NCBI GenBank assembly: GCA_964035545.1
Contig: OZ037771.1
Span: 15,605,289 to 15,669,288 of the forward strand
DNA: 64,000 bases
Reading direction: 5' to 3'
From: Bugula neritina
Lineage: Eukaryota > Bryozoa > Gymnolaemata > Cheilostomatida > Bugulidae
How positions within the stretch are numbered: position 1 is the stretch's first letter; each line of letters opens with the position of its first letter. Of this stretch, positions 12,601-63,900 are shown in pieces. The translations under genes were made by a program, and so were the position numbers. The notes under the pieces were generated by a model that worked only from the letters and a program-made list of their open reading frames with translations, was not told the DNA's origin and did not search any database.

Positions 12601-15600
12601 ATGATGTCACAGCTCCATAGGAAACTGCAAGGCGCTGGGCTACCACCTATGATGCCTCCAAGGTGAGAATTGTGTGCTTACCTTGTATACTGTAATACTG
12701 TAATACTTGTATACTGTAATACTATATACTTACCTTGTATACTGTAATACTGTAATACTTATATACTGTATTACTATATACTCACCTTGTATACTGTAAT
12801 ACTATATACTTACCTTATATACTGTATTACTATATAAGTTACCTTATATACTGTATTACTATATACTATTTCAGTTTTGGCACACGAGTCCCGCGCCACA
12901 AAAGACGGGATTACTCAGTCTTGCCCTGGAACAACTACTTTGATAGCAGAGAAATGGTTGTGACCTCCAGGGGTAGTTTCTGTACCTATACAAAAGGTTG
13001 CACAGGTAATATACTTGTGAACATGTGTGAATAGCTTTATGATGTATATACTGGTTTTAATAATCCACATGTATTGGTAAGTATGCTTAGAGAATCTGTA
13101 ACCATGTGTGTCTGTGTGTCTACTGTCTGTCTGTGTGTAGGTCCGCTAGTTGTGTGCCTCCACGGAGGGGGTTTCTCTGCTCTCTCCTGGGCTCTCTTCT
13201 CCAAACATCTGGTTGAGGCAGCTCAGTGCCAAGTCTTGGCCTTTGACCTTCGAGGTCACGGTGACACCAAAACCAGCAATGACGGTGATCTGTCCATAGA
13301 GACACTAACCCTGGACGTAGGAGCTGTTATACAGGGCTTCTATATCAACACAGAACCCCCTCCAATCGTTCTACTGGGTCATAGGTGGGTAGCCTTTGCT
13401 ACTCTAAATGATTCCTACCATACTCATGAGTTATGAGTATACTGTGTGTAATAATATAGCCTGATGTCCGTTATGTCTGCTGTACTTTTAGTATGGGCGG
13501 CTCTGTGGCAGTCCACTCTTCCAAAATAGACATAGTTCCCTCTCAGATTGGACTTGTGGTTATTGATGTTGTAGAAGGTAAGTACATGTTGTAGAAGGTA
13601 AGTACGTGTTGTAGAAGGTAAGTACATGTTGTAGAAGGTAAGTACGTGTTGTAGAAGGTAAGTACATGTTGTAGAAGGTAAGTACAAAGTGATACTACAT
13701 ATTGTTTTAGAAATGAATTTATTTGATTTACTGCAGGCTCAGCCATGGAGTCACTAAATGGAATGAAATCCTTTCTTCGTAGTCGACCCCAAATGTTCAA
13801 ATCTTTGGAGCACGCTATAGAGTGGAGGTGATAGTATATAGTATATACATGCTATAGTGTGGAGGTGATAGTATATAGTATATACACGCTATAGAGTGGA
13901 GGTGATAGTATATACACGCTATAGAGTGGAGGTGATAGTATATAGTATATACATGCTATAGTATAGAGTGAAAGTCATAGTATATAGTATATAATGTCTA
14001 TTATACGGTATTATTGCAGTGTAAGGGGAGGGCAGATTAAGAACTGTGAAAGTGCTAGGGTGTCTATGATTGGTCAACTGAGACCATGTGTTTCTGCCAA
14101 AGCCCTGCCTTCTGCAGATCATCACGGGCCAACTGATGTTATAAAGGAAGAGGAGGAGAGTGAATCTGCAGGAAATAATGTAAGTCTCACTCACTTGGTA
14201 TTAACACCTTCTCTGTCGCTGTAGCTAATCTATAGAACTACTGTCATATCTATAGAACTACTGTCATATCTATAGAACTACTGTAATATCTATAGAACTA
14301 CTGTCATATCTATAGAACTACTGTCATATCTATAGAACTACTGTCATATCTATAGAACTACTGTCATATCTATAGAACTACTGTCATATCTATAGAATTA
14401 CTGTCATATCTATAGAACTACTGTCATATCTATAGAACTACTGTCATATCTATAGAACTACTGTCATATCTATAGAACTTCTGCCATATCTATAGAACTA
14501 CTGACATATCTATAGAACTACTGTCATATCTATAGAACTACTGTCATATCTATAGAACTACTGTCATATCTATAGAACTACTGGCATATCTATAGAACTT
14601 CTGCCATATCTATAGAACTACTGACAATGTATTGGTGATCACATCTTTCAGATTGACCACCAGTCCACATCTGAGACGGTCTCCCAGCTGACAGATGTTC
14701 CTTATGAGTGGAGGATAGACTTAGAGAAGACAGAGGAGTTTTGGTCTGGTAAGGGTGCTGTGCCCCCAATGCCCACATTTATTTGTACAGCACACTTTTT
14801 CAGTAGACTCATACTTATATAACTAATAGCTGACTAACGTGTGCTGTATGTTGGCTGTTTGTAGGCTGGTTTCAGGGTCTCTCCTCGCTCTTCCTGAGTA
14901 CACCTGTACCTAAAGTACTGATTCTTGCAGGTTTGGTTATTAACTATTAGTCTGCTATACTGTGGGTTAGTGATACTGTAAGTTAGTTACACTGTGCGTT
15001 ACTTACACTGTGAGTCAGTTATACTGTGACTTGGTTACACTGTGAGTTACTTACACTGTGAGTTAGTTACACTGTAAATCAGTTACACTGTGAGTTACAC
15101 TGCAGGTGTAGATAGGTTGGACAAGGATTTAGCTATTGGGCAGATGCAAGGAAAATTCCAGATGCAGATCGTTGGCCAGGCAGGACACGCTGTTCATGAG
15201 GATGCTCCAGATAAGGTGGGCTGTCTTTATACCTCCACTACTCTCTACTATCTTCTACTTCTACTAGCTTCTACTTCTACTAGCTTCTACTCTATACTAT
15301 CTTCTACTCTCTACTATCTTCTACTCTATACTAACTTCTACTCTCTACTATCTTCTACTCTCTACTATCTTCTACTCTATACTATCTTCTACTCTCTACT
15401 ATCTTCTACTCTATACTAACTTCTACTCTCTACTATCTTCTACTCTCTACTATCTTCTACTCTCTACTAACTTCTACTCTATACTATCTTCTACTCTCTA
15501 CTAACTTCTACTCTACTAACTTCTAATCTATACTAACTTCTACTCTCTACTAACTTCTACTCTCTACTAACTTCTACTCTATACTAACTTCTACTCTCTA

Positions 15601-16343
15601 CTATCTTCTACTCTCTACTAGCTTCTACTCTCTACTAACTTCTGCTATGTTTGCTGCTATGTTGACAGGTTGCTGATGTTGTTGCTACTTACATGATCAG
15701 GAATAAGTTTACAGTTGAAGGGGAATATTTCCACAGGTGTGTGCTGCATAATAGTATGAATGTATGCCTGGCGTATGAATTGTACTGTGTTTAATAATAT
15801 TCATCATTGTCTATATTATTATGAGGTTATACTGTGTTCTAATGAGTGTCACTGTGACGGTGTCGGGTAAAAATGGCACAGGTAAAAATGGTACAGTGAA
15901 AATGGCAAAGTAGGTAATAATGGCACATTTTCAATATTAGGTTTAGGGTAGGATTGGGTGTTTGGGACAGGGGTTTGAGGTTGGGATTTAAAGGTTGAGG
16001 GTTTGAGTTTAAGGTTTTGGAAAATTTAACACCAGTGTGCCATTTTTTCCTACTTTTCCATTTCTGCCCTTTTTACCTGTGCCATTTTTACCTAAAGTCC
16101 ACTGTGACTATATATTATAATGAATATCATTGTGACTGTATATATAATGAGTATCACTGTGATAATATATATGAGTATCACTGTGATTGTATATATGAGT
16201 ATCACTGTGATAGTATATATGAGTATCACTGTGATAGTATATATGAGTATCACTGTGATAGTATATATGAGTATAACTGTGATTGTATATATAATCTACA
16301 CCTCTTTTTGTTGTGTTTTTGTAGAGTTACCCCCACCTGCTGA
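12601..16343 (+). CDS. PPME1: Protein phosphatase methylesterase 1
   Basis: Eleven coding exons: 12601-12662, 12875-13005, 13141-13384, 13492-13577, 13737-13827, 14020-14179, 14652-14748, 14865-14930, 15106-15215, 15669-15736 and 16325-16343. Together they are 1134 nt, 377 aa plus stop, close to the usual length of about 386. The enzyme is an alpha/beta-hydrolase that removes the C-terminal methyl ester from the PP2A catalytic subunit and inactivates the phosphatase. Visible landmarks are an N-terminal KRRDYSVLPWNNYF, the oxyanion-side CLHGGGFSALSWALF, the nucleophile elbow GHSMGG (Ser split by the exon 3/4 junction), the acid region VVIDVVEG, EWSVRGGQIKN, an acidic insert EEEESE, PYEWRIDLEKTE, and the catalytic His in GHAVHEDAPDKV. 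The short last exon ends VTPTC, matching the short Cys-ending tail of the animal proteins. The start is the first ATG of an adjacent ATG pair. Introns carry tandem repeats and one MITE-like element. Expected in cytosol and nucleus. Confidence 0.95.
12680..12868. repeat. AT-rich array in PPME1 intron 1
   Basis: Degenerate repeats of accttgtatactgtaatact and shortened versions, ending next to the acceptor of exon 2. Confidence 0.75.
13567..13687 (+). repeat. 20-bp array copying the PPME1 exon 4 donor
   Basis: The unit atgttgtagaaggtaagtac repeats about six times. It is the last 12 bases of exon 4 plus the donor gtaagtac, so each copy is a complete AG|GTAAGT site. The intron is only 159 bp. Confidence 0.92.
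13811..13990 (+). repeat. Array copying the PPME1 exon 5 donor
   Basis: Copies of cacgctatagagtggag|gtg, the exon 5 end plus donor, recur about four times with agtatatag spacers. Confidence 0.88.
14224..14630. repeat. 20-bp array in PPME1 intron 6
   Basis: About 20 copies of tatctatagaactactgtca. No splice-site copy. Confidence 0.92.
14945..15650. repeat. Short arrays in PPME1 introns 8 and 9
   Basis: Units are gttacactgtgagttactta at 14945-15100 (intron 8) and the pyrimidine-rich ctactctctactatcttcta at 15225-15650 (intron 9). Exon 9 (15106-15215) lies between them. Confidence 0.85.
15866..16092. mobile_element. Palindromic MITE-like element in PPME1 intron 10
   Basis: The 227-bp element begins ggtaaaaatggcacaggt and ends in the reverse complement of the same sequence. 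The outer 23 bases of each arm are identical, and weaker pairing continues to about 65 bases per arm. The motif aaaatggcac recurs several times inside each arm. There is no coding capacity. I cannot see a clear target-site duplication. A non-autonomous DNA transposon is the best reading. Confidence 0.6.
16115..16300. repeat. About 25-bp array beside the MITE-like element
   Basis: tatatatgagtatcactgtg repeats about seven times in PPME1 intron 10, starting 20-odd bases after the MITE-like element. Confidence 0.85.
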
Positions 16344-16640: not shown

Positions 16641-17750
16641 CTACTTGCTACTACTTTCGTCATCTACAGCATTCACTGCGAGCTTGCCTTCTTCAATCAA
16701 TTGTCCTTCTTTAGCTGGTTGAGTTTCAGAAACTTCTACTACTTTAGCAGGTTGAGATTTAGCGACTTGCCCTCCTGTATCTGATTGCGTTTTAACAACT
16801 GACTCTATTTTAGCAACTGACCCTATTTTAGCAGGTTGAGATTTAGTAGGTTGTGTTTTAACAATTTGCCCTCCTGTATCTGATTGTGTTTTAACTGGTT
16901 CTACTTTAGCAGCCGACTCCATTCTAGCAGTTTGAGATTTAGAAACTTGTTCTACTTTGGCAGGTTGTGTTTTACCAGCTTGCCCTCCTGTATTGGGTTT
17001 GGATTTCATAACTTGTTCTACTTTGGCAGGTTGTGTTTTAGCAACTGACTCTATTTTAACAGGTTGTGTTTTAGCAACTTGCCCTCCTTTAATAGGTTGT
17101 GTTTTAGCAACTTGCCCTCCTTTAATAGGTTGGGTTTTAGCAACTTGCCCTCCTTTAGTAGGTTGTGTTTTAGCAACTTGTACTACTTTAACAGCTTGTA
17201 TTTTAGCGACGTGTTGTTCTTTTGCAGGTTGACCAGCTTTAAAAAGGTTTCCTGTTTGAGAAATTAGTCGCTTTCCTAGAGGTACTTTCTGATTTGGTGG
17301 CTCTGCTTTTACTTGCGCCTTTCCGCTTTGAACTTCCCCAGCAACAAGACTTTTTCTCTCAGCTGAGGTATCACCTGGGATTACAGTAACCCTCTCCTCT
17401 GTTGCTGCCACTGTTGAACCCTCTGGCACCGTATCCTCTCTCTGTCCTCCGGTATTCTTCTCTGTCTGCAACTTCTCTCTAAGTGAGGTAGACAGTCCTT
17501 GCACCACTGTGTCCAGAGTGTTGGCAAAGGCTCTCGAGAACAAAGAAGTTTTTACTTCTTCCACTTTATCCGTCTCTTCTATTACGTTTTCTTCTGGAAG
17601 CTTCTCTACTCGTCCTTTTTCATCTGGCAGCTTTTCATTGGATGTTCTCTTGTCTATCTTTTTCTGCTGTGGTTGAGTTGGTGTAACACTGGACCACCCG
17701 GATTCATACAGAACCATCGACTTTTCCTCTGCCACCTTCTCTTTCTTTAC
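16641..17750 (-). CDS. Last exon of the EGF-like membrane protein: repetitive cytoplasmic tail
   Basis: One 1110-nt exon, open to a TAG stop and preceded by a good acceptor (tttcacaacag). It encodes 369 residues rich in Lys, Gln, Pro, Val and Thr. The first 150 residues are charged and low-complexity (KLPDEKGRVEKLPEEN) with one more ordered stretch, LFSRAFANTLDTVVQGL, which could be an amphipathic helix. From about residue 1181 of the protein the motif GGQVAKTQPIK and diverged versions recur, reflecting a 33-36 bp tandem repeat in the coding DNA. The tail ends DDESSSK. No enzymatic domain is visible; it is probably a disordered intracellular tail. Confidence 0.8.
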   Translation of the reverse strand, partial: VKKEKVAEEKSMVLYESGWSSVTPTQPQQKKIDKRTSNEKLPDEKGRVEKLPEENVIEETDKVEEVKTSLFSRAFANTLDTVVQGLSTSLREKLQTEKNTGGQREDTVPEGSTVAATEERVTVIPGDTSAERKSLVAGEVQSGKAQVKAEPPNQKVPLGKRLISQTGNLFKAGQPAKEQHVAKIQAVKVVQVAKTQPTKGGQVAKTQPIKGGQVAKTQPIKGGQVAKTQPVKIESVAKTQPAKVEQVMKSKPNTGGQAGKTQPAKVEQVSKSQTARMESAAKVEPVKTQSDTGGQIVKTQPTKSQPAKIGSVAKIESVVKTQSDTGGQVAKSQPAKVVEVSETQPAKEGQLIEEGKLAVNAVDDESSSK

Positions 17751-20700
17751 CTGTTGTGAAAGTACACTGGTTACTGTAAGTACAGTCATATCAACACTGG
17801 TTACTGTAAGTACAGTCATAGCAACACTGGTTACTGTAAGTACAGTCATAGCAACACTGGTTACTGTAAGTACAGTCATAGCAACACTGGTTACTGTAAG
17901 TACAGTCATAGCAACACTGGTTACTGTAAGTACACTCATAGCAACACTGGTTACTGTAAGTACACTCATAGCAACACTGGTTATTGTAAGTACAGTCATA
18001 GCAACACTGGTTACTGTAAGTACAGTCATAGCAACACTGGTTACTGTAAGTACAGTCATATCAACACTGGTTACTGTAAGTACAGTCATATCAACACTGG
18101 TTACTGTAAGTACAGTCATATCAACACTGGTTACTGTAAGTACAGTCATATCAACACTGGTTACTGTAAGTACAGTCATAGCAACACTGGTTACTGTAAG
18201 TACAGTCATAGCAACACTGGTTACTGTAAGTACAGTCATATCAACACTGGTTACTGTAAGTACAGTCATATCAACACTGGTTACTGTAAGTACAGTCATA
18301 TCAACACTGGTTACTGTAAGTACAGTCATAGCAACACTGGTTGCTGTAAGTACAGTCATAGCAACACTGGTTACTGTAAGTACAGTCATAGCAACACTGG
18401 TTACTGTAAGTACAGTCATATCAACACTGGTTACTGTAAGTACAGTCATAGCAACACTGGTTACTGTAAGTACAGTCATAGCAACACTGGTTGCTGTAAG
18501 TACAGTCATAGCAACACTGGTTACTGTAAGTACAGTCATAGCAACACTGATTACTGTAAGTACAATCATAGCAACACTGATTACTGTAAGTACAGTCATA
18601 GCAACACTGGTTACTGTACGTACACTCATAGCAACACTGGTTACTGTAAGTACAGTCATAGCAACACTGGTTACTGTACGTACACTCATAGCAACACTGG
18701 TTACTGTAAGTACACTCATAGCAACACTGGTTACTGTAAGTACACTCATAACAACACAAACATCTTTGATACTATCTTTTAGCAAAAAAGAAACTGTTAA
18801 GAAATGAAGGTTTTAAAAAAGGAAAACATCAACACTTGTCAATAGACAGACAACATAATACTGGTTATGAACAGTTGAGTATATTCAGATACACATGTAG
18901 AACATAGTTGTTATATGACTCACTACTTTGGCCTTCTTCTTTGGAGCCTTGCTTGCAATGAACTGCATACTAAAGAGTTGGCTCAGTCTTTTTTCTGTTT
19001 TGAACTTCCATCTATTTCTTCAAATCGAATCAGAAGTACGCATTTCACATGCTTCAATATGAAAAGATGAATACTAGATAAAGTATATGAATATACAGAC
19101 TATACAGACAATACAGACTACTCACAGCATATGTGGCTGGCTGTCGTCCTGCTTGTATGAGAGAGCAGTAAGATAGACCAGGTAAAATATCAGACCAGTG
19201 GTAAGGGTGGCTAAGAACCAGCCCCACCATGGGATCAGCTCTACAAACAGGAAGTGTGTACTGTACACAGCACATCATGGAGTAAGACAATGACGTCTAA
19301 CAATAGAGAACTATGAAGGTGAAGGTCAACTCACCTAGGAGTCGTACAGATCTGTCGTCTTTGACTGGAGCCGCATCTGAGTAAAGACTTGTACACCGTC
19401 CAGACAGGTTGTTGGCTCTTTGCTCATCAAAACAGCGACAGGAGCCCAACCCTTTATAACTGTATGTGTTGGTCGGACTTTGAACACATATGGTTCTCCC
19501 AAACTCATCTTTGATCCACGTGCAATCTAACTGATTTCTACACAGTACTACAACACACTAGTAACAGTACTACAACACACTAGTAACAGTAGTACATCAC
19601 ACTAGTAACGGTACTACAACACACTAGTAACAGTACTACAACACACTAGTAGCAGTACTACAACACACTAGTAACAGTACTACAACACACTAGTAACAGT
19701 ACTACAACACACTAGTAACAGTACTACAACACACTAGTAACAGTACTACAACACACTAGTAACAGTACTACAACACACTAATAGCAGTACTACAACACAC
19801 TAGTAACAGTACTACAACACACTAGTAACAGTCCTACAACACCTTCTCCAGGAAGACACTCCTGGTGCTGCCCCTCATCTTCCGTATTCTGCACCGCTGC
19901 CAGAACTGTGCCGTCCGGACAGAAACAAAAGCCCAGCGGATGGCAGATGCTGCCAGGAATCTCCCCGCTGCACAGAGTCGGCTCCACCTCGCACCTCACT
20001 TGGGTGGTAACTTGATCTGTCACAAAACTGTTCTCTACAGCGAAACATGTGATACACTGAGGTCTAGCTGTACACACTGAGGTCTAGCTACATACACTGA
20101 GCTCTAGCTACATACACTGAGGTCTAGCTTTACACTAAGGTCTAGCTTCACACTGAGCTCTAACTGTATACACACTGAGCTCTAGCTATACACACTGAGC
20201 TCTTCATGTACTAACCTCGACATATGTACTTCTCCTGACTATCAGATACTTGTTCTGAACAGAGGAGCCATTCAAACAGACATGGGTTTGGGTCACACAC
20301 ATCTGAAGTATCATACAGAGAGTATATAGTAAGTATATACAGAGAGTATATAGTAAGTATATACAGAGAGAGTATATAGTATATAGTAAGTATTATACAG
20401 AGAAAGTATATAGTATATAGTAAGTATCATACAGAGAGTATATAGTATAGTATATAGTAAGTATCATGCAGAGAGTATATAGTATATAGTAAGTATATAC
20501 AGAGAGTATATAGTATATAGTAAGTATCATGCAGAGAGTATATAGTATATAGTAAGTATCATACAGAGAGTATATAGTAAGTATATACAGAGAGTATATA
20601 GTATACAGTAAGTATCATACAGAAAGTATATAGTATATAGTAAGTATCATACACATAGCATAGTGAATACATAAACAGAGTAAGTAATGAACTGACCGGC

Positions 20701-23700
20701 TGTATCACAAGTATCTCCCGTGTAGCCTGAGGGACACACACACCGACCCTCTTCACACCGGGCACCGTTTAGACATTGCAGTCTGCCCTCCCCACACGGA
20801 ACCTGCGCTATCTCACAGTAGACTCCCTCGTAACCGGCGGCATTCGTACAGTCACAGGATATGACATCATCCCCTGTGCAGACTCCTCCGTGTAGACATG
20901 GCTTGTAATCTGAACAGGATAGAGAGAGATATACTCTCTGGTATTCTACCCAACACAATGCATATTGTAAACTCTTAACTTACACTTTTCACAGACCGTA
21001 CACTCCCTCTTTGTGCAGAACTTTACAGCAAACTTCTCCATTTTCTCTGAAAGAACGTAATATAAATTGTACAGAGACGTATCATACTGTATATAATATA
21101 TACTATCATACTGTATATAATATATACTATTACTCTGTATGTAATATACTATCACACTGTATATAATATACTATTACACTGTATATAATATACTATTACA
21201 CTGTATATAATATACTATTACACTGTATATAATATACTATTACACTGTATATAATATACTATTACACTGTATATAATATACTATTACACTGTATATAATA
21301 TACTATTACACTGTATATAATATACTATTACACTGTATATAATATACTATTACACTGTATATAATAATATACTATTACACTGTATATAATATACTATTAC
21401 ACTGTATATAATATACTATTACACTGTATATAATAATATACTATTACACTGTATATAATAATATACTACTACACTATGTGATGCACACACACCAACACAA
21501 ACCTATACACTCTGCTGTGAAGTTATCCCCAGAATAAACCAGCCAATCAGGTGAGAAGTTGAAGTCAGAGATGACCTCATTGTAACCGCTGCTACTAGCT
21601 GTATCCACCACTTTTATATGAACCATTGATGTGTGTAAAATCTCATTGGTTGCGTTTTTGAGTCTCCATTCACATCGGATTGGCAAATACTCTACGATAC
21701 ACAGAGTATTACCTGACATGTACAGTTTGCTACCTGAGACAACGTGTAGTGAACAGAGTAATACTTGAGACAATGTGTAGTGAACAGAGTAATACTTGAG
21801 ACAATGTGTGGTGAACAGAGTAATACTTGAGACAATGTGTAGTGAACAGAGTAATACTTGAGACAACGTGTAGTGAACAGAGTAATACTTGAGACAATGT
21901 GTAGTGAACAGAGTAATACTTGAGACAATGTGTGGTGAACAGAGTAATACTTGAAATAATGTGTGGTGAACAGAGTAATACTTGAGACAATGTGTAGTGA
22001 ACAGAGTAATACTTGAAATAATGTGTGGTGAACAGAGTAATACTTGAGACAATGTGTAGTGAACAGAGTAATACTTGAGACAATGTGTAGTGAACAGAAT
22101 ACTTGAGACAAGACACACCAGCTACTGTGGTGTCTTGTACAGTCAAGTTTACTATCTCTGTGTGAGCAATGTAGGCGTATGTAGTCTGAGTGCCAGTTTC
22201 ATCTTTCCTTGTGAGTACAGAAAATGAGACGCTTTTCTGTTCCTTGCAGCCAATAAACATCTACTAAACAAATAGACACACGATTCAAACAGAATCCATA
22301 CAGCTATTCCAACTTTATCAACTCTATAATATACTATATCACGTAACCAGACAACACTTATTCTATATACTATATCACGTAACTAGACAACACTTACTCT
22401 ATATACTATATAATGTAACCAGACAACACTTACTCTATATATTATATAACGTAACCAGACAACACTCACTCTATATATTATATAATGTAACCAGTCAACA
22501 CTTACTCTATATACTATATCACGTAACTAGACAACACTTACTCTATATACTATATAATGTAACCAGACAACACTTACTCTATATATTATATAATGTAACC
22601 AGACAACACTTACTCTATACTGTATGAGGTGGTGAAGCTGTTCCATGCTGACATAAGCACACTGCACTGATACACTAGCACGCTGCTGCACCTTGTAGTA
22701 CTGAGCAGCGGTGGCAGCAGTCAAGTTGGAATCACCAATCACAGTTACTTGTATTCCTTCAGACACTATAACTTGGACGTCTGTGAAAATATCAACCCGC
22801 TTCTAACTATGTCACAACGTAACGTAACTATGTCACAACGTAATGTGACTACGTCATAACGTAATGTGACTATGTCATAACGTAATGTGACTACGTCATA
22901 ACGTAATGTGACTATGTCATAACGTAATGTGACTATGTCATAACGTAATGTGACTATGTCATAAGATGGGTCAATAGGTTAGTCTAACAGAATGCTATTC
23001 GCTCACCTCTTACAAAGAAAGAAGTCACTCTGGATTGCTCAGCTCCAAACACTTTATCAACTATAAACATTCTGTCCTCGGCAGTATACACAAAGTAGGG
23101 CTGGCAATGAAATGATATTACTATATACATGATAATAATACTATATACACGATATTATTACTATATACATGATATTAATACTATATACATGATATTATTA
23201 TTACTATATACACGATATTAATACTATATACATGATATTAATACTATATACACGATATTAATACTATATACATGATATTATTACTATATACATGATATTA
23301 TTACTATATACACGATATTAATACTATATACGTGATATTATTACTATATACATGATATTATTACTATATACACGATATTAATACTATATACACGATATTA
23401 ATACTATATACATGATATTATTACTATATACATGATATTAATACTATATACATGATATTATTACTATATACACGATATTATTACTATATACACGATATTA
23501 TTACTATATACATGATATTAATACTATATACATGATATTAATACTATATACATGATACTAATAGTACTTTGTGTAGAGAACAAGGGTGAAGTGCTGGGTG
23601 TTTCCCCATAGCCTCAGTTCTTGAGTTGACACAGAAGTAAAAAATGTTTACAGGTGTCTGTTGTGAGAACACAAGGAGAGTGTGAGACGCGGTATCCATG

Positions 23701-51688: not shown

Positions 51689-51719
<31 letters not shown>

Positions 51720-51761
51720 GCTACTGCTACTGCTACCGCTACAGCTACCGCTACCGCCACC

Positions 51762-51795
<34 letters not shown>

Positions 51796-51921
51796 GTACT
51801 ACTAGTACTACTAGTACTACTACTACTACTGCTGCTACTACTGCTACTGCTACTGCTACTGCTACTGCTACTGCTACTGCTACTACTACTACTAGTACTA
51901 CAACTAATTTTAATACTAATT

Positions 51922-51971
<50 letters not shown>

Positions 51972-54900
51972 GGTAGGCATGCACATGGGTCTAGGAGGAA
52001 ACCCATATGGACCTGCTGGAACTGGCAAAACAGAGTCTGTGAAGGCGCTGGGAGGTCTGTTTGGCAGGCAGGTGCTGGTGTTCAACTGTGACGAGGGGAT
52101 AGACGTGAAATCTATGGGCAGGATATTCATCGGTTTGGTTAAGTGTGGCGCCTGGGGCTGCTTTGACGAGTTCAACAGACTGGAGGAAGCCGTGCTGTCG
52201 GCTGTCTCCATGCAAATTCAAGTCATACAGGACGCCATTAAGAGGAAGGCACCAACTGCAGAGCTTCTCAGCAGAACGGTAGGTGTTATCTGTAGAGCTT
52301 CTCAACAGAACAGTAGGTGTTATCTGTAGAATATCACAGTACTATGCTAGGTGTTATCTGTAGAATATCACAGTACTATGCTAGGTGTTATCTGTAGAAT
52401 ATCACAGTACTATGCTAGGTGTTATCTGTAGAATATCACAGTACTATGCTAGGTGTTATCTGTAGAGTATCACAGTACTATGCTAGGTGTTATCTGTAGA
52501 GTATCACAGTACTATGCTAGGTGTTATCTGTAGAGTATCACAGTACTATGCTAGGTGTTATCTGTAGAGTATCACAGTACTATGCTAGGTGTTATCTGTA
52601 GAGCACCACAGTACTACGCCAGGTGTTATCTGTAGAGTATATTATATTTACAGGTGGATATTGATCCCAACTCTGGTATTTTCATAACCATGAATCCAGC
52701 TGGTAAGGGATACGGTGGGCGTCAGAAACTGCCCGACAACTTGAAGCAGTTGTTTAGACCGGTGGCCATGTCTAAACCAGACAATGAGTTGATCGCTGAA
52801 GTCATTCTCTTCTCTGAAGGTTTCAAATCAGCTAAAGAGCTCGGCAGGAAGCTGGTAGCCATATTTAATCTAAGCAAGTACGTCTCTATTCATACTCCAA
52901 ACCCCCCCCCCGTCCCCTCATCATACTCCCCCGTCTCCTCATCATACTCTCCTGTCTCCTCATCATACTCTCCTGTCTCCTCATCATACTCTCCTGTCTC
53001 CTCATCATACTCCCCTGTCTCCTCATCATACTCCCCTGTCTCCTCATCATACTCTCCTGTCTCCTCATCATACTCTCCTGTCTCCTCATCATACTCTCCT
53101 GTCTCCTCATCATACTCCCCTGTCTCCTCATCATACTCCCCTGTCTCCTCATCATACTCCCCTGTCTCCTCATCATACTCTCCTCATCATACTCTCCTCA
53201 TCATACTCTCCTGTCTCCTCATCATACTCTCCTGTCTCCTCATCATACTCTCCTGTCTCCTCATCATACTCCCCTGTCTCCTCATCATACTCCCCTGTCT
53301 CCTCATCATACTCTCCTGTCTCCTCATCATACTCTCCTGTCTCCTCATCATACTCTCCTGTCTCCTCATCATACTCTCCTGTCTCCTCATCATACTCTCC
53401 TGTCTCCTCATCATACTCCCCTGTCTCCTCATCATACTCCCCTGTCTCCTCATCATACTCCCCTGTCTCCTCATCATACTCTCCTCATCATACTCTCCTC
53501 ATCATACTCTCCTGTCTCCTCATCATACTCTCCTGTCTCCTCATCATACTCCCCTGTCTCCTCATCATACTCCCCTGTCTCCTCATCATACTCTCCTGTC
53601 TCCTCATCATACTCCCCTCATCATACTCTCCTGTCTCCTCATCATACTCTCCTGTCTCCTCATCATACTCCCCTGTCTCCTCATCATACTCCCCTGTCTC
53701 CTCATCATACTCTCCTGTCTCCTCATCATACTCCCCTCATCATACTCTCCTGTCTCCTCATCATACTCTCCTGTCTCCTCATCATACTCCCCTGTCTCCT
53801 CATCATACTCTCCTGTCTCCTCATCATACTCTCCTGTCTCCTCATCATACTCTCCTGTCTCCTCATCATACTTCCCTGTCCCCTCATCATACTCTCCTGT
53901 CTCCTCATCATACTCCCCTGTCTCCTCATCATACTCTCCTGTCTCCTCATCATACTCTCCTCATCATACTCTCCTGTCTCCTCATCATACTCTCCTGTCT
54001 CCTCATCATACTCTCCTGTCTCCTCATCATACTCTCCTGTCTCCTCATCATACTCTCCTCATCATACTCTCCTGTCTCCTCATCATACTCTCCTGTCTCC
54101 TCATCATACTCTCCTGTCTCCTCATCATACTCTCCTGTCTCCTCATCATACTCTCCTGTCTCCTCATCATACTCTCCTCATCATACTCTCCTCATCATAC
54201 TCCCCCGTCCCCTCATCATACTCTCCTGTCTCCTCATCATACTCTCCTGTCTCCTCATCATACTCTCCTGTCTCCTCATCATACTCTCCTGTCTCCTCAT
54301 CATACTCCCCTGTCTCCTCATCATACTCCCCTGTCTCCTCATCATACTCTCCTGTCTCCTCATCATACTCTCCTGTCTCCTCATCATACTCTCCTGTCTC
54401 CTCATCATACTCCCCTGTCTCCTCATCATACTCCCCTGTCTCCTCATCATACTCCCCTGTCTCCTCATCATACTCTCCTGTCTCCTCATCATACTTCCCT
54501 GTCCCCTCATCATACTCTCCTGTCTCCTCATCATACTCCCCTGTCTCCTCATCATACTCTCCTGTCTCCTCATCATACTCTCCTCATCATACTCTCCTGT
54601 CTCCTCATCATACTCTCCTGTCTCCTCATCATACTCTCCTGTCTCCTCATCATACTCTCCTGTCTCCTCATCATACTCTCCTCATCATACTCTCCTCATC
54701 ATACTCTCCTGTCTCCTCATCATACTCCCCTCATCATACTCTCCTGTCTCCTCATCATACTCTCCTGTCTCCTCATCATACTTCCCTGTCCCCTCATCAT
54801 ACTCTCCTGTCTCCTCATCATACTCTCCTGTCTCCTCATCATACTCCCCTGTCTCCTCATCATACTCGCCTGTCTCCTCATCATACTCTCCTGTCTCCTC

Positions 54901-57900
54901 ATCATACTCTCCTGTCTCCTCATCATACTTCCCTGTCCCCTCATCATACTCTCCTGTCTCCTCATCATACTCCCCTGTCTCCTCATCATACTCTCCTGTC
55001 TCCTCATCATACTCTCCTGTCTCCTCATCATACTCTCCTGTCTCCTCATCATACTCTCCTCATCATACTCTCCTGTCTCCTCATCATACTCTCCTGTCTC
55101 CTCATCATACTCTCCTGTCTCCTCATCATACTCCCCTGTCCCCCCCCCCCTGTCTTTATTCTACCAGTTAGCTCGTAGAGTCTATTCAATGCTGCTACTA
55201 TAGCTGTAGTGTTACTATTCAATACTGTTACTATAGCTGTAGTGTTACTATTCAATACTGTTACTATAGCTGTAGTGTTACCATTCAATACTGTTATTAT
55301 AGCTGTGGTGTTACCATTCAATACTATTACTATAGTTGAAGTGTTACCATTCAATGCTACTTCTAGAGAGCTGCTAACCCCTCAGCAACACTATGACTGG
55401 GGTCTCAGAGCGCTGAAAACTATCCTACGAGGTTGTGGCAACTTGTTGCAGACTGCCAGACGCAATCTTCCTGAAGGAGGTTGGTTAACATTCTTTCTCT
55501 CTTTACGTCTTTTTGTTTCTTTTTTGTTTTGTTATTTTATTCCTACAGGTAAAGTGTATTATATTATATTATATAATCATGCAAGTGAAGTGTAGTATAT
55601 TATATTATATAATCACACAGGTAAAGTATATTATATAATCATACAGGTAAAGTAGACAGTGTCCTGGAAGCAAAGCTCGTAGTACAAGCTCTCAGGATCA
55701 ATACCCTCTCCAAGCTGACCTTCACAGACGGGTCACGGTTTGATGCTCTCGTTAGGGATGTTTGCCCCGGGATAGACTTCAAGGACATCGAGTACGAGCA
55801 GCTTGCTGCTGCTTACAGAGATGTCTGCAAAGAGAAACATCTGTTGGTTAATGAGAACCAGGTGAGATTAGCCTGCTTTCTGATTGGTTAATGAGAACCA
55901 GGTGAGATTAGCCTGCTTTCTGATTGGTTAATGAGAACCAGGTGAGATTAGCCTGCTTTCTGATTGGTTAATGACAATCAAGCTCGCTGAACACGTAGCC
56001 AATCCGAAGTCTTTCTTATGATTCAGGTGAAGAAAGCCTTGGAGCTATATGAGCAGCTACGCCAGCGTATGGGGGTGGTAGTGGTGGGCCCGTCAGGTTC
56101 TGGTAAGTCTACTTTGTGGAACACCCTGAGGGTGGCTATGGAGCGCTCCGGACACACAGTGAAGTACTACACTATGAACCCTAAGGCTATGCCAAGAACT
56201 CAGCTACTTGGACAGATTGATATTGACACGAGGGAGTGGACAGACGGGGTGCTCACTAACAGTGCTAGGATGGTGGTGAAGGAGCCTCAGGGTAACTTAT
56301 CTACCTGTATATTCTATTCTGTACGCTGTGTAACTGTGTATAGTACTGTGTATAGTACTGTGTAACTGTGTATAGTACTGTGTATAGTACTGTGTAACTG
56401 TGTATATTTTATTCTGTACGCTGTGTAACTGTGTATAGTACTGTGTATAGTACTGTGTAACTGTGTATAGTACTGTGTATAGTACTGTGTATAGTACTGT
56501 ATATAGTACTGTGTAACTGTGTATAGTACTGTGTATAGTACTGTGTAACTGTGTATATTCTATTCTGTACGCTGTGTAACTGTGTATAGTACTGTATATA
56601 GTACTGTGTAACTGTATATAGTACTGTGTATAGTACTGTGTATAGTACTGTGTATAGTACTGTGTATAGTACTGTGTATAGTACTGTGTATAATACTGTA
56701 TTACTATGAATAATACGGTATTATTGTTATACTACCCTTTGACAGAGATCCAGTCATGGATTGTGTGTGATGGCGATATCGATCCTGAATGGATTGAGTC
56801 TCTAAACTCGGTGTTGGATGACAATCGTCTTCTGACGATGCCCTCTGGTGAGAGAATTCAGTTCGGTCCAAATGTTAACTTCCTGTTTGAGACGCATGAC
56901 TTGAGCTGCGCATCTCCCGCCACCATTTCCCGTATGGGGATGATATTTCTAAGGTATACAGTATACATGTATTACAGTATGTATTACAGTATGCATTACA
57001 GTATGTATTACAGTATATATTACAGTATATATTACAGTATATATTACAGTATATATTACAGTATGTATTACAGTATATATTACAGTATGTATTACAGTAT
57101 ATATTACAGTATATATTACAGTATATATTACAGTTTGTATTACAGTATATATTACAGTATATATTACAGTATATATTACAGTATATATTACAGTTTGTAT
57201 TACAGTATATATTACAGTATATATTACAGTATATATTACAGTATATATTACAGTATATATTACAGTATGTATTACAGTATATATTACAGTATATATTACA
57301 GTATGTATTACAGTATATATTACAGTATATATTACAGTATATATTACAGTATATATTACAGTATATATTACAGTTTGTATTACAGTATATATTACAGTAT
57401 ATATTACAGTATATATTACAGTATATATTACAGTATATATTACAGTTTGTATTACAGTATATATTACAGTATATATTACAGTATATATTACAGTATGTAT
57501 TACAGTATATATTACAGTATATATTACAGTATATATTACAGTATATATTACAGTATATATTACAGTATATATTACAGTATATATTACAGTATATATTACA
57601 GTATATATTACAGTATATATTACAGTTTGTATTACAGTATATATTACAGTTTGTATTACAGTATATATTACAGTATATATTACAGTATATATTACAGTTT
57701 GTATTACAGTATATATTACAGTATATATTACAGTATATATTACAGTATGTATTACAGTATATATTACAGTATGTATTACAGTATATATTACAGTATATAT
57801 TACAGTATATATTACAGTATATATTACAGTATGTATTACAGTATATATTACAGTATATATTACAGTATATATTACAGTATATATTACAGTATATATTACA

Positions 57901-60900
57901 GTATATATTACAGTATATATTACAGTATATATTACAGTATATATTACAGTTTGTATTACAGTATATATTACAGTTTGTATTACAGTATATATTACAGTAT
58001 ATATTACAGTATATATTACAGTTTGTATTACAGTATATATTACAGTATATATTACAGTATATATTACAGTATGTATTACAGTATATATTACAGTATGTAT
58101 TACAGTATATATTACAGTATATATTACAGTATATATTACAGTATATATTACAGTATACGTGTATTATAGTGATGAAGACACAGATGTCAAGGCTATAATA
58201 CAAGCCTGGCTAGACAAACTGTCTGAAGGCGAGAGAGACCGCGTGTCTGGCTGGATTGAAGATTATTTCTATAGAGGACTGGACTTTGTACTCAAACAGG
58301 TGAGACAGTGCATCACCTTCAGTATTTCTATTCTATTAGATTATTTCTATTCTATTAGAGTATTTTTATTCTATTAGAGTATTTTTATTCTATTAGAGTA
58401 TTTTTATTCTATTAGAGTATTTCTATTATATTAGAGTATTTCTATTCCATTAGAGTATTTCTATTCTATTAGAGTATTTCTATTCTATTAGAGTATTTCT
58501 ATTCTATTAGAGTATTTCTATTATATTGGAGTATTTCTATTCTATTAGAGTATTTGTATCACACAGAACGACCTCGTAGTGGACACGAGTCTAGTTGGAG
58601 TCGTGCTGAATGGCTTATCCCATCTGAGTAGTGTGACAGATAAGACTGAGTTCTGTATCAACTTGATACGGGGACTCGGAGGTAATCTCTCTCAGAAAAC
58701 CCGAGAGAACTTTGCTAAAGAGGTATGCATCTCACCTACAATCTGTAATAATGTGTTTTGATGTAATGTGTGTTCGTGTAGATCTACTCTGTCTGTCTGT
58801 CTGCCTGTCTGTCTGCCTGTCTGTGTGTGTGTGTCTACAGGTGCTCTCTGTCTGATTGCAGGTGTTTTCCTGGTTCCACGAGATGCCACCCGATGCACAG
58901 AGACCTCTCAACACCTACTACGACCCCAGATCAGGCTCTCTCTCCTCTTACGTCATGGAGGTCAATGATGATCTCTCTCTGGACAGTTTCTCTTCAGACT
59001 CTCTCCCTGTCGTCCAGACCAGCTCCATACAGATGGGTCTGGACTACTTCACCCCCTGGCTACACCCCCAGAACAAGCAGCCCTTCATACTAGTTGGACC
59101 TGATGGCTGTGGCAAGGGGTGAGTTAAATCCACTCCCTCCCTTTCTCTCTCCCAGTGTGTTACTTATATATGTATACGTATATATTATATTATATATATA
59201 TGTATACGTATATATAATATAATATATATGTATATATAATATAATATATATATTTGTAGACTGCTTCTGCGTCACTGCTTTGCACAGCTGAGGTCTGTTC
59301 AAGTTGCCACAGTTCATTGCAGTGCCCAAACCACTCCCCTTCACGTTCTGCAGAAACTAGGTCAAAGCTGCATGGTAGGTCACATGACTCCCTCACTCTA
59401 CTAGACATACTCTGAGTATCACAGCTTCGCCTTCTCACAGTCACGTCACTCACTTCCCTCTTTGTAGGTCATCAGTACGAACAAGGGCAGAGCCTACCGA
59501 CCTAAAGACGCTGAGAGACTAGTTCTCTATCTCAAAGACATCAACTTACCAAAACCTGACAAGTGGGGGACCAGCATGCTTATCGCCTTTCTCCAGCAGG
59601 TGCCTCCTCCCTCTTTACCTTGCTACCTGTGTGTGCTACCTGTGTGTGCTACCTGTGTGTGCTACCTGTGTGTGCTGCCTGTGTGTGCTACCTGTGTGTA
59701 CTACCTGTGTGTGCTACCTGTGTGTGCTACCTGCGTGTGCTACCTGTGTGTGCTACCTGTGTGTGCTACCTGTGTGTACCACCTGTGTGTGCTATCTGTG
59801 TGTGCTACCTGTGTGTGCTACCTGTGTGTGCTACCTGTGTGTGCTGCCTGTGTGTGCTACCTGTGTGTGCTACCTGTGTGTGCTACCTGTGTGTGCTGCC
59901 TGTGTGTGCTGCTTGTGTGTGCTACCTGTGTGTGCTACCTGTGTGTGCTACCTGTGTGTGTTTCCTGTGTGTGCTACCTGTGTGTGCTACCTGTGTGTGC
60001 TGCCTGTGTGTGCTGCCTGTGTGTGCTACCTGTGTGTGCTACCTGTGTGTGCTACCTGTGTGTGTTTCCTGTGTGTGCTGCCTGTGTGTGCTACCTGTGT
60101 GTGCTGCCTGTGTGTGCTACCTATGTGTGCTACCTGTGTGTGCTACCTGTGTGTGCTACCTGTGTATACTGTCAGCTGTTAGTGTATGTCATGCTGTCTT
60201 GCAGGTGCTGACCTACAACGGATTTTATGACCCAAATAACGAGTGGGTGGGTTTAGAAGGCGTGCAGATTGTAGCCTCAATGAATGCCGGTGGTTCGGTT
60301 GGTAAACATGACCTCACCTCTAGATTCACGTCTATTGTTAGAATCTGCTGCATAGAGTAAGTCTTTCACTTTGTTATGCTCTACACTCTATACTCTGTAT
60401 TATATACTCTATATCCTGTATTCTATATTCTATACTCTATATCCTGTATTCTATATCCTATATTCTATACTCTATATCCTGTATTCTATACTCTATATCC
60501 TGTATTATATACTCTATATCCTGTATTCTATACTCTATATCCTGTATTATATACTCTATATCCTGTATTCTATACTCTATATCCTGTATTCTATACTCTA
60601 TATCCTGTATTCTATACTCTATATCCTGTATTCTATACTCTATATCCTGTATTCTATACTCTATATCCTGTATTCTATACTCTATATTCTATGCTCTATA
60701 TTATATTCTGTAAGACTCTGCTGTAACATCTGTTCCAGTTATGCAGACCGTGAACAGCTGCAAGCTATATACGGGGCGTACCTGAAGCCCATCCTCCAGA
60801 AGCAGTTGAGTGGACATCCTGTGTGGGAGAGCGGGGCCAAAGTTCATGCCCTTTCCTGTTCCATGGTGCAGACGTACGAGCAGCTGAAGGAGGCTTTCTC

Positions 60901-63900
60901 TGTAGACGATCACAGCCACTACCTCTTCACCCCTCGTGACCTTACGCAGTGGGTGTCCAGCCTTCTCAGGTGTGTATATGATACTATACTCAGGTATATG
61001 ATACTATACTCAGGTATATGATACTATACTCAGGTATATGATACTATACTCAGGTATATGATACTATACTCAGGTATATAATACTATACTCAGGTATATA
61101 ATACTATACTCAGGTATATGAGACTATACTCAGGTATATGATACTATACTCAGGTATATGATACTATACTCAGGTATATGCTACTATACTCAGGTATATG
61201 ATACTATAATCAGGTATATGCTACTATACTCAGGTATATGATACTATACTCAGGTATATGATACTATACTCAGGTATATAATACTATACTCAGGTATATA
61301 ATACTATACTCAGGTAGATGATACTATACTCAGGTATATGATACTATACTCAGGTATATGATACTATACTCAGGTATATAATACTATACTCAGGTAGATG
61401 ATACTATACTCAGGTATATAATACTATACTCAGGTATATGATACTATACTCAGGTATATGATACTGTACTCAGGTATATGATACTATACTCAGGTATATG
61501 ATACTATACTCAGGTGTGTATATGATACTATACTCAGGTATATAATACTATACTCAGGTATATGATAATATACTCAGGTAGATGATACTATACTCAGGTA
61601 TATGATACCATTAGTATATAAGAAGTTACTCTCTCTCTTTAGGTATGACTTGAGTGGAGACAACTCCAGTGAACACGTTGTGTCCATCTGCTGCTATGAG
61701 GCTAAGCGACTGTTCAGAGATAGAATTGTTGGAACAGAGTCTAGAGAGAGATTCGACAGCATTCTTCAGAGTGTGTTCAGAGCTGACTGGAATTCTGCTC
61801 TCTCTGACAGCAAAGAAGGTGTGTCCTACCCCAGTGCCCTCGTGTATAGTATCCTCTTGTGTAGTATCCTCTTGTATGGTATCCTCGTGTATAGTATCCT
61901 CATGTATAGTATCCTCGTGTATAATATCCTCATGTATAGTACCCTCTTGTATAGTATCCTCTTGTATAGTGCCCTCGTGTATAGTATCCTCTTGTATAGT
62001 ATCCTCTTGTATCGTATCCTCATGTATCGTATCCTCATGTATAGTATCCTCTTGTATAGTATCCTCTTGTATAATATCCTCTTGTATAGTATCCTCATGT
62101 ATAGTATCCTCATGTATAGTATCCTCGTGTATAATATCCTCGTGTATAATATCCTCATGTATAATATCCTCATGTATAGTATCCTCCTGTATAGTATCCT
62201 CATGTATAATATCCTCATGTATAGTACCCTCTTGTATAGTATCCTCTTGTATAGTGCCCTCGTGTATAGTATCCTCATGTATAGTACCCTCTTGTATAGT
62301 ATCCTCATGTATATTATCCTCTTGTATAGTACCCTCATGTATAGTAGCCTCATGTATAATATCCTCATGTATAGTATCCTCTTGTATAGTGCCCTCGTGT
62401 ATAGTATCCTCGTGTATAGTATCCTCGTGTATAGTATCCTCATGTATAGTATCCTCGTGTATAGTATCCTCCTGTATAGTATCCTCATGTATAGTACCCT
62501 CGTGTATAGTATCCTCGTGTATATTATCCTCATGTATAGTATCCTCATGTATAGTATCCTCGTGTATAGTATCCTCCTGTATAGTATCCTCATGTATAGT
62601 GCCCTCGTGTATAGTATCCTCGTGTATATTATCCTCATGTATAGTATCCTCATGTATAGTATCCTCGTGTATAGTATCCTCCTGTATAGTATCCTCTTGT
62701 ATAGTGCCCTCGTGTATAGTATCCTCGTGTATATTATCCTCATGTATAGTATCCTCATGTATAGTATCCTCGTGTATAGTATCCTCCTGTATAGTATCCT
62801 CATGTATAATATCCTCATGTATAGTACCCTCTTGTATAGTATCCTCTTGTATAGTGCCCTCGTGTATAGTATCCTCTTGTATAGTATCCTCTTGTATCGT
62901 ATCCTCATGTATATTATCCTCTTGTATAGTATCCTCATGTATAGTATCCTCATGTATAGTATCCTCGTGTATAATATCCTCGTGTATAGTATCCTCATGT
63001 ATAGTATCCTCTTGTATAGTATCCTCTTGTATAGTATCCTCTTGTATAATATCCTCATGTATAGTATCCTCCTGTATAGTATCCTCATGTATAGTACCCT
63101 CATGTATAGTAGCCTCATGTATAATATCCTCATGTATAGTATCCTCATGTATGGTATCCTCATGTATATTATCCTCTTGTATAGTATCCTCATGTATAGT
63201 ATCCTCATGTATAGTATCCTCGTGTATAATATCCTCGTGTATAGTATCCTCATGTATAGTATCCTCTTGTATAGTATCCTCTTGTATAGTATCCTCTTGT
63301 ATAATATCCTCATGTATAGTATCCTCCTGTATAGTATCCTCATGTATAGTACCCTCATGTATAGTAGCCTCATGTATAGTATCCTCATGTATGATCTTCA
63401 GAAACCTACTTTGTGACCTGGGGAGGGCACGCCACGGACGCAGCTCCTGGTGCCCCTATGCCAGCCCATGGCAAGTGTCTCGGAAAGATAGCATCTGAAG
63501 ACTTCAAGAATATCGTGGAGAAGGGATTAGTTCAGTATGGTGAGTCTCACGTCTGTTTGTCTTGACATCACTTCCTGTGTAATGCCTGTGTAAACTGTCC
63601 ATCATTTCCTGTGTAATGCCTGTGTGAACTGTCCATCACTTCCTGTCCTATTCATCACACAGGTCGAGAGAACATGGATTTAGACATCATAGTGTTCGAG
63701 GAGGTGTTGGATCACATTGCCAGGGTAGACCGAGTTCTCACCATGCCAGGAGGGTCGTTGCTGATGGCCGGAACATCTGGCGTAGGGAGACGATCAGCCG
63801 TGACTCTCGTGTCTTACCTCCACCAGATGTCTCTCTTCACACCCAAAGTTGGCAGAGGTTACTCTGTCAAACAGTTCAAGAATGACTTGAAGAACGTACG

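What the first reader, a model, noticed from the sequence alone, without database searches (positions are those of the whole stretch)
13560..63400. Intronic minisatellites built from copies of the adjacent splice site
In many introns across three genes on both strands, the tandem unit is the last 10-25 bases of the exon plus its 5' splice site. Cases are PPME1 introns 4 and 5; EGF-like gene introns 4, 10 and probably 8; and DYNC2H1 introns 17, 24, 26, 28 and 31, with intron 40 closely similar. Other arrays carry the acceptor plus exon start. The units are unrelated to each other, so the shared feature is the position: arrays seem to nucleate at exon-intron boundaries. I know tandem duplication of AGGT-containing sequence as a proposed route of intron gain, but not amplification to tens of copies across whole genes.
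Basis: partly seen in the sequence, partly recalled or inferred. Interest (0 to 1): 0.87.

Follow-up and report, generated by a model that had tools for sequence, protein, structure and literature searches.

The report
Intron minisatellites, some copying splice sites
Near a chromosome end of a bryozoan (a small colonial sea animal), most introns have filled up with their own short tandem repeat, and in about one intron in eight the repeated piece includes the end of the exon and its splice signal; this looks mostly like repeats starting anywhere in very short introns rather than a process aimed at the boundary.

Summary
The window is subtelomeric: Bugula neritina chromosome 7, 144 kb from the end. 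Four genes were modelled (PPME1, an EGF-domain gene, a DCUN1D4/5-like gene, DYNC2H1). 62 of 73 introns carry a private minisatellite. The 5' exon-intron junction recurs inside its own intron in 6-10 of 73 introns, depending on stringency (0.00 expected from other introns), the 3' junction in 3-6 of 73. DYNC2H1 intron 17 keeps GT in 58 of 58 donor copies.

"Arrays nucleate at boundaries" is only partly supported. Recurrence rises smoothly from exon into intron without a peak at the junction, and donor-spanning arrays (7 of 43, or 9 of 53) are as many as random placement in short introns gives (6.9-11.7). Genome-wide, tandem AGGTAAGT is common (1,703 hits; backward control 9); 12 of 20 fetched cases start at a readable exon end. 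Word counts leave room for a modest donor preference.

Best reading: a minisatellite-forming process, strong near chromosome ends, seeds at random in short introns, and splicing tolerates repeated donors. Untested and more novel: how splicing picks one of up to 59 identical donors.

The parts
12875..15736 (+). PPME1 (protein phosphatase methylesterase 1), 9 exons modelled
   Evidence: (PDB 7soy E 1.7e-119), sequence read
13566..13686 (+). PPME1 intron 3 array, unit ATGTTGTAGAAG|GTAAGTAC (20 nt, 6 copies); first 12 nt are the end of the coding exon (13577 is the last exon base)
   Evidence: 5 of 5 later copies keep GT
13811..13986 (+). PPME1 intron 4 array, copies spaced 30-42 nt, CACGCTATAGAGTGGAG|GTGATAG...; 17 nt exonic
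   Evidence: 4 of 4 keep GT
16641..27618 (-). EGF-domain gene, 18 exons predicted, no full-length homologue found
25448..26593 (-). EGF gene intron 3 array (about 30 nt, 38 copies), runs 13 nt into the upstream exon; donor GGGGTATA|GTAAGTAT repeated
   Evidence: 37 of 37 keep GT
22329..22619 (-). EGF gene intron 8 array (36 nt, 8 copies), runs 6 nt into the predicted exon
   Evidence: 6 of 7 keep GT; exon prediction weak
19542..19842 (-). EGF gene intron 13: the array (22 nt, 13.7 copies) makes up the whole predicted intron and repeats the acceptor
   Evidence: exon boundaries uncertain
28735..32167 (-). DCUN1D4/5-like gene, 7 exons predicted, an array in each of 6 introns
   Evidence: (PDB 5v89 E 6.7e-51)
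34164..64000 (+). DYNC2H1 (dynein-2 heavy chain), 43 exons modelled, cut off by the window end
44293..46248 (+). DYNC2H1 intron 17 array, unit ATGGTACTAGGGCTAAGATAGT|GTGAGTAATAC (33 nt, 59 copies); 22 nt exonic; collapsed intron only 21 nt
   Evidence: 58 of 58 keep GT
49038..50879 (+). DYNC2H1 intron 24 array, unit AGTAGAGACAACTCCTGATGTAGAG|GTGTGTATGT (35 nt, 52.6 copies); 25 nt exonic; collapsed intron only 15 nt
   Evidence: 50 of 51 keep GT
51336..51507 (+). DYNC2H1 intron 26 array (about 39 nt); copies carry a stronger donor (PWM up to 9.02) than the exon's own (7.63)
   Evidence: 3 of 3 keep GT
52280..52640 (+). DYNC2H1 intron 28 array (34 nt, 10.6 copies); first intronic copy repeats the exon end (CTTCTCAACAGAACA|GTAGG), later copies diverged
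55840..55974 (+). DYNC2H1 intron 31 array (40 nt, 3.4 copies), ...GAGAACCAG|GTGAGATT; 22 nt exonic
   Evidence: 2 of 2 keep GT
42941..43480 (+). DYNC2H1 intron 15 acceptor-spanning array (23 nt, 23.5 copies), 9 nt into the downstream exon
   Evidence: 15 AG-keeping copies
48315..48514 (+). DYNC2H1 intron 22 acceptor-spanning array ACTGAGTACAG|AGTACTTG (19 nt, 10.5 copies), 18 nt into the exon
   Evidence: 9 AG-keeping copies
56970..58157 (+). DYNC2H1 intron 33 array TATTACAG|TATA (12 nt, 99 copies), reaches 4 nt into the exon
   Evidence: 86 AG-keeping copies

Best explanation
These are ordinary minisatellites, as a rule one private array per intron (56 of 62), formed by tandem duplication of whatever 10-45 bp segment was present and then amplified (2 to 107 copies) by unequal exchange or slippage, a process far stronger near chromosome ends. 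The introns they invaded were short (collapsed length 39-165 nt in 50 of 62; array-free introns 74-168 nt), so a segment seeded at random has roughly a one-in-five or one-in-six chance of straddling the 5' splice site. When it does, the first copy stays attached to the exon, the later copies carry duplicate donors, and the gene stays functional as long as splicing uses the exon-attached donor. Shown: the arrays, their placement statistics, the own-junction origin, the terminal enrichment of tandem repeats, the near-absence of arrays from exons. Inferred: the duplication mechanism, that the first donor is the one used, and that splicing rather than mutation decides which boundary arrays survive.
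For: Placement: donor-spanning arrays 7 of 43 single-array introns in the three homology-supported genes, expected 6.9-9.8; 9 of 53 with the EGF gene, expected 8.3-11.7; recurrence profile without a junction peak in 73 window introns and 99 predicted interior introns. Units share only TA-rich low complexity (29 pairs at E<0.01), no core motif and no hairpin bias found. Exons (12,396 bp) hold no array of their own, only 161 bp of overlap; introns (34,714 bp) hold 68 and are 81% array. Terminal effect: tandem repeats 50.5% of the window, 21-59% in five other stretches about 70-263 kb from ends (one of them is 64% N), 6.6% mean in 20 stretches 1 Mb or more from ends. End copies less pure than middle copies in 15 of 26 long arrays, the reverse in 9, P 0.025, as unequal exchange predicts. 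GT is kept in nearly all donor copies: 58 of 58, 50 of 51, 37 of 37, 6 of 7, 5 of 5, 4 of 4, 3 of 3, 2 of 2, 1 of 1 (copies within 4 mismatches of the junction).
Against: Tandem AGGTAAGT: 1,703 hits against 9 for the backward word, while the single words differ only 10,267 to 6,689; a composition-matched word is expected in only about 28-47 arrays (extrapolation) against roughly 375 (my extrapolation: 22 arrays in the 100 rows listed). Intron location explains part of this, perhaps not all. In the window arrays are 8.1 per kb of collapsed intron but 0.91 per kb of intergenic DNA, which a purely positional, chromosome-end process does not explain. DYNC2H1 introns 17 and 24 collapse to 21 and 15 nt, too short to be the ancestral introns, so sequence has been lost or the introns were rebuilt. 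Two of the nine donor cases (introns 26 and 28) were added by hand to the TRF-based count.
Confidence: 0.62

Rival explanations
1. Arrays preferentially nucleate at the 5' exon-intron boundary, for example because the donor word or transcription and splicing at that point provoke breaks or slippage.
For: Tandem donor word far above the backward control and, by extrapolation, above composition-matched words; 12 of 20 fetched arrays start at a readable exon end; interior array starts with an exon-donor at LOD>10: 3 of 95 against 15 of 1,509 random starts.
Against: No junction peak; window counts equal random placement; 0 of 36 array-start tests in four subtelomeric stretches; the 20 fetched arrays were chosen because they hold the donor word, so 12 of 20 is not a rate.
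Confidence: 0.2
2. Splicing polarity filters the arrays: boundary duplications arise on both sides, donor copies are tolerated, acceptor copies are removed because scanning from the branch point would take the first AG and add repeat sequence to the mRNA.
For: Acceptor word TTTGCAGG in tandem: 29 hits in 5 arrays against 1,703 donor hits; acceptor-spanning arrays in the window 5 (k=3) or 3 (k=5) of 53 against 6.9-11.7 expected, P(<=obs) 0.004-0.14.
Against: The single-word count of TTTGCAGG was not obtained, and a composition-matched word is itself expected in only 11-15 arrays; in the window donor and acceptor cases are 9 and 5, not very unequal.
Confidence: 0.35
3. Intron gain or renewal by tandem duplication of exonic AGGT segments (Rogers model): the array is the intron.
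For: DYNC2H1 introns 17 and 24 and EGF intron 13 collapse to 21, 15 and 16 nt; units contain AG|GT in PPME1 introns 3 and 4 and DYNC2H1 24, 26 and 31.
Against: In the other seven donor cases 13-109 nt of non-array intron lie between array and acceptor, and the acceptors of introns 17 and 24 (CTCCCAG, TGCAG) are not plain unit copies. Age of the introns not testable here.
Confidence: 0.08

Closest known systems
Subtelomeric VNTRs/minisatellites of humans (Linthorst et al. 2020, PMC7608644; passages read)
   Same: Tandem units longer than 15 bp, strongly enriched towards chromosome ends, also in introns.
   Different: The human class with 21-fold enrichment in the last 5 Mb is GC-rich (>60%); here units are about 31% GC, the effect is strongest in the last few hundred kb as far as sampled, and 62 of 73 introns of four neighbouring genes are hit.
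IFI6 (6-16) splice-donor minisatellite (Turri et al. 1995; not held; known from recall, from its title in the reference lists of PMC4526556 and PMC2572611, and from one sentence of PMC4526556)
   Same: A minisatellite at an exon end whose units supply several splice donor sites.
   Different: A single human gene with alternative use of downstream units; here many unrelated arrays across a genome, up to 59 copies; the first later donor would shift the frame in 5 of 9 cases examined.
[quoted passage not shown] Hellsten et al. 2011 ATP2A1; fission yeast 24-bp AGGT duplicates; as described in PMC4974935, passages read)
   Same: Tandem duplication of AGGT-containing sequence, in yeast with several copies.
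   Different: There the duplication supplies both splice sites of a new intron; here an acceptor outside the array is normally kept.
Introner elements (recalled; named in a passage of PMC4974935)
   Same: Repeated sequence tied to introns in many genes.
   Different: Introners are dispersed families; these units are unrelated between introns apart from low complexity.

Membership tests
Minisatellite (VNTR class) | Head-to-tail units of about 10-100 bp | tested here: met
   66 intronic arrays with units of 10 nt or more, median 22 nt; a few arrays have shorter units (2, 4 and 6 nt in DYNC2H1 introns 36, 35 and 27)
Minisatellite (VNTR class) | Copy number varies between haplotypes or individuals | not testable with these tools
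   the alternate haplotype GCA_964035465.1 is named in the genome note but was not at hand
Subtelomeric VNTR | Enrichment towards chromosome ends | tested here: met
   donor arrays 5 of 22 in the first 0.5 Mb of C1 (expected 0.32; list cut at 33.96 Mb); arrays 3 of 15 within 0.5 Mb, 4 within 0.6 Mb, 4 within 1 Mb, 5 within 2 Mb of an end (P 0.028, 0.007, 0.040, 0.12)
Subtelomeric VNTR (human GC-rich type) | GC content above 60% | tested here: not met
   unit composition A .321 C .140 G .172 T .367
IFI6-type donor minisatellite | Units contain the 5' splice site of the adjacent exon | tested here: met
   6-10 of 73 introns by stringency
IFI6-type donor minisatellite | More than one copy is used as donor in mRNA | not testable with these tools
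   no RNA data; first later donor gives a frameshift in 5 of 9 cases examined
Tandem-duplication intron gain | Both splice sites come from copies of one duplicated exonic segment | tested here: not met
   acceptor 5-52 nt outside the array in all 7 donor cases of the three homology-supported genes; EGF intron 13 may be an exception but its boundaries are uncertain
Tandem-duplication intron gain | Intron absent from relatives | not testable with these tools
   G000 has no relatives here
Introner elements | Shared sequence among introns | tested here: not met
   29 unit pairs at E<0.01, the 15 listed are 12-18 nt long; no core motif found

The most novel reading that the evidence does not exclude
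Array birth is coupled to the 5' splice site and filtered by splicing: tandem duplications form several times more often across donors than elsewhere in introns, acceptors are avoided, and the resulting ladders of identical donors let exon ends hop by one unit (as the 24-nt array of L056 seems to show, where the first donor copy is mutated and reads as coding). Hundreds to thousands of introns of one animal (my extrapolation) would then be natural experiments in 5' splice-site choice among identical competitors.
Probability: 0.2. Interest if true: 0.78.

Novelty: new variant of a known kind. Interest (0 to 1): 0.52.

Why it matters
It is a system in which one gene carries dozens of identical 5' splice sites in a row (58 later copies in DYNC2H1 intron 17 that score the same as the true donor) next to a single true exon end. 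Since the first later copy causes a frameshift in 5 of 9 cases, and a stop in intron 17, the transcripts of these genes would directly show how the spliceosome picks among identical donors, by exon definition or by order of transcription. It also shows near-saturation of introns by minisatellites at a chromosome end, with an intron/intergenic contrast that is not explained. The corrected lesson is that junction-containing repeats do not by themselves imply boundary-directed duplication when introns are only a few repeat units long.

Tried and rejected
Rejected: a common core motif or hairpin as driver. The interior genome behaving like the window. The backward-word control as sufficient proof of nucleation (array composition matters; no composition-matched search was answered, only the estimate). 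Sea squirts as source organism (the lengths of Ascidia mentula and Clavelina lepadiformis do not fit). A fifth gene at 0.1-5.3 kb minus strand with CH-domain-like exons (by eye; Pfam found nothing). The first gene-finder run was far too permissive and was replaced. Interior gene predictions are unsupervised and rough. One-array statistics left out introns with two or more arrays and units under 10 nt.

Not obtained: proteins from the 5.8-billion set, the scrambled control AGTAGGTA, the single count of TTTGCAGG (not asked).
Full report
WHERE IT IS. The window lies in an animal genome of 215.8 Mb at C7:15605289-15669288, C7 being 15,813,509 bases, so 144 kb from a chromosome end. All nine large contigs (35.64, 33.58, 32.42, 24.80, 17.72, 16.05, 15.81, 13.35, 10.88 Mb) equal Table 3 of the Bugula neritina genome note (PMC11480708; passages read), so the animal is the ruby bryozoan, chromosome 7. 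The held main text of that note has no occurrence of 'repeat' or 'intron'.

GENES. I modelled four genes: PPME1 (+, 12.9-15.7 kb), an EGF-domain gene (-, 27.6-16.6 kb), a DCUN1D4/5-like gene (-, 32.2-28.7 kb) and DYNC2H1 (+, 34.2 kb to the end) (PDB matches; Pfam EGF). The DYNC2H1 and PPME1 models used for training translate without stops (2,588 and 339 codons). The EGF gene rests on prediction alone for most junctions.

ARRAYS. Tandem repeats cover 50.5% of the window. 62 of 73 introns hold an array, 56 exactly one; the 11 array-free introns are 74-168 nt long, and array-bearing introns collapse to 15-441 nt, 50 of 62 to 39-165 nt. Introns are 81% array; exons hold no array of their own, 161 of 12,396 exonic bp overlap one.

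THE OBSERVATION. PPME1 intron 3 is the clearest case: the coding exon ends ...GATGTTGTAGAAG and the intron goes on GTAAGTACATGTTGTAGAAGGTAAGTAC.... A junction word recurs in its own intron in 10 of 73 introns (8+8 bases, up to 2 mismatches) and in 6, 7, 7 and 8 of 73 at four other settings, expected 0.00 from other introns each time; for acceptors 6 of 73 and 3, 3, 3, 4 (expected at most 0.01). Donor copies are retained: GT kept in 58 of 58 (intron 17), 50 of 51 (24), 37 of 37 (EGF 3), 6 of 7 (EGF 8), 5 of 5 (PPME1 3), and in 8 of 9 examined introns some later GT site scores at least as high as the true donor. Using the first later donor would shift the frame in 5 of 9 cases; in intron 17 it keeps the frame but meets TGA at once (read).

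GENOME-WIDE. Three AGGTAAGT at gaps of 8-38: 803 + 900 hits, backward control 3 + 6. The longer word CAAGGTAAGT: 53 + 37 hits in 15 arrays by my count, control 0 + 0. Of 20 arrays on C1 fetched with 400 bases upstream (20 of the 22 distinct ones in the 100 rows listed), 12 start in or at a readable coding exon end (L042, L044-L048, L050, L054, L056, L059-L061), one more (L057) starts 19 nt after an exon end, and 7 have no readable exon (my reading, and the automatic score alone was weak for several). Ten of those peptides were put to Pfam: a caspase (2.3e-9), two OATP exons (4.1e-6, 3.8e-13) and, below the curated cut-off, PFK (6.5e-4); the other six gave nothing. So junction-derived donor ladders are a feature of this genome, not of one locus.

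IS THE BOUNDARY SPECIAL? I tested placement five ways. (1) Recurrence profile: 0 of 73 at -36, 3 at -24, 10 at -8, 12 at 0, 35 at +20, 48 of 71 at +60; no peak. (2) Random placement of a unit in the collapsed intron: expected 9.8, 8.2 or 6.9 of 43 (no floor, floor 74, floor 100 nt on ancestral length), observed 7, P(>=obs) 0.90, 0.74, 0.55; with the EGF gene 11.7, 9.7 or 8.3 of 53, observed 9, P 0.87, 0.65, 0.45. Without the hand-added intron 28 the counts are 6 and 8. (3) Starts: 7 of 62 in the last 25 exonic nt (9 with the two hand-added cases), 30 in the first 25 intronic nt. (4) Interior introns (predicted genes): 1 of 99 at the junction, 7 of 98 at +30. (5) Exon-donor score at array starts: interior 4 of 95 against 40 of 1,509 random starts at LOD>6, 3 of 95 against 15 of 1,509 at LOD>10; window 14 of 148 against 5 of 65 at LOD>6; four subtelomeric stretches 0 of 36 against 20 of 273. 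None shows a strong preference. Against this stands the word count: by extrapolation an average permutation of AGGTAAGT should sit in 28-47 arrays, while 22 arrays in 100 listed rows and 1,703 hits suggest some 375 (my arithmetic). Donors lie only in introns, where arrays are denser, so part of the excess is expected; a rough per-intron estimate of my own leaves 2-4-fold, within the error of the inputs. I therefore regard a modest donor preference as open.

POLARITY. The acceptor word TTTGCAGG in tandem gives 10 + 19 hits in 5 arrays, control 0. Composition-matched words would give 11-15 arrays. In the window acceptor-spanning arrays are 5 of 53 (k=3) or 3 of 53 (k=5), expectation 6.9-11.7, P(<=obs) 0.004-0.14 over the settings tried; in the three homology-supported genes 4 or 2 of 43, P 0.004-0.16. 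A filter by splicing (first AG after the branch point) would explain a shortfall; the data only hint at it.

CHROMOSOME ENDS. Tandem repeats: mean 6.6% in 20 stretches of 10 kb at 1 Mb or more from contig ends (0-22%); 36, 50, 59 and 24% in four 5-kb stretches 95-263 kb from ends and 21% in a fifth, about 70 kb from the end, of which 64% is withheld. Donor arrays on C1: 5 of 22 in the first 0.5 Mb, expected 0.32.

MECHANISM. Seeds seem to be whatever sequence was there: no shared motif (the donor-like GTAAGTA, 7 units against 1.3 expected, is among the most enriched 7-mers), no hairpin bias. End copies are less pure than middle ones (15 of 26 arrays, 9 the other way, Wilcoxon P 0.025), consistent with unequal exchange. 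Introns 17 and 24 of DYNC2H1 collapse to 21 and 15 nt: the original intron remainder seems to have been lost and the array now makes almost the whole intron.

PRIOR WORK. Searches of the held library (listings) showed no report of intron minisatellites in bryozoans nor of genome-wide splice-donor minisatellites; the library is partial. Known relatives: human subtelomeric VNTRs (PMC7608644, passages), the IFI6 donor minisatellite (via citing papers), AGGT intron gain (PMC4974935, passages).

VERDICT. The nucleation claim is not needed for the window; it survives as a modest, untested preference.

Noticed in passing
window, all compartments: Arrays are 8.1 per kb of collapsed intron but 0.91 per kb of intergenic DNA in the same window; the interior contrast is only 0.48 against 0.24. 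Unexplained intron bias.
   Followed up: partly
L056 (C1:26999155-26999655): 24-nt unit; the first copy's donor reads AAGT and the copies read through as coding (VIIPTSKS VIIPT), so the exon end seems to have moved one unit downstream.
   Followed up: partly
56970-58157: DYNC2H1 intron 33: 99 copies of TATTACAGTATA, 86 AG-keeping copies of the acceptor and no stop codon in any forward frame of the consensus.
   Followed up: no
51336-51507: In DYNC2H1 intron 26 the exon end and the array copies differ at three codons, all synonymous (AAC/AAT, AAG/AAA, TTG/CTG); the last copy also has a TAG. As if the array kept an older exon sequence (read).
   Followed up: no
135-5253 (-): Possible fifth gene with a calponin-homology-like peptide by eye; Pfam found nothing; arrays at 1552-2505 and 3939-4822 would then be intronic too.
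   Followed up: partly
L022 (C7:5000001-5010000): 50% GC, no tandem repeats and a high-scoring long open prediction, unlike the other stretches sampled.
   Followed up: no
L020 (C7:1000001-1010000): A flippase-like gene (by eye) with arrays in 10 of 14 predicted introns, three array starts scoring as exon ends, 1 Mb from the other end of C7.
   Followed up: partly
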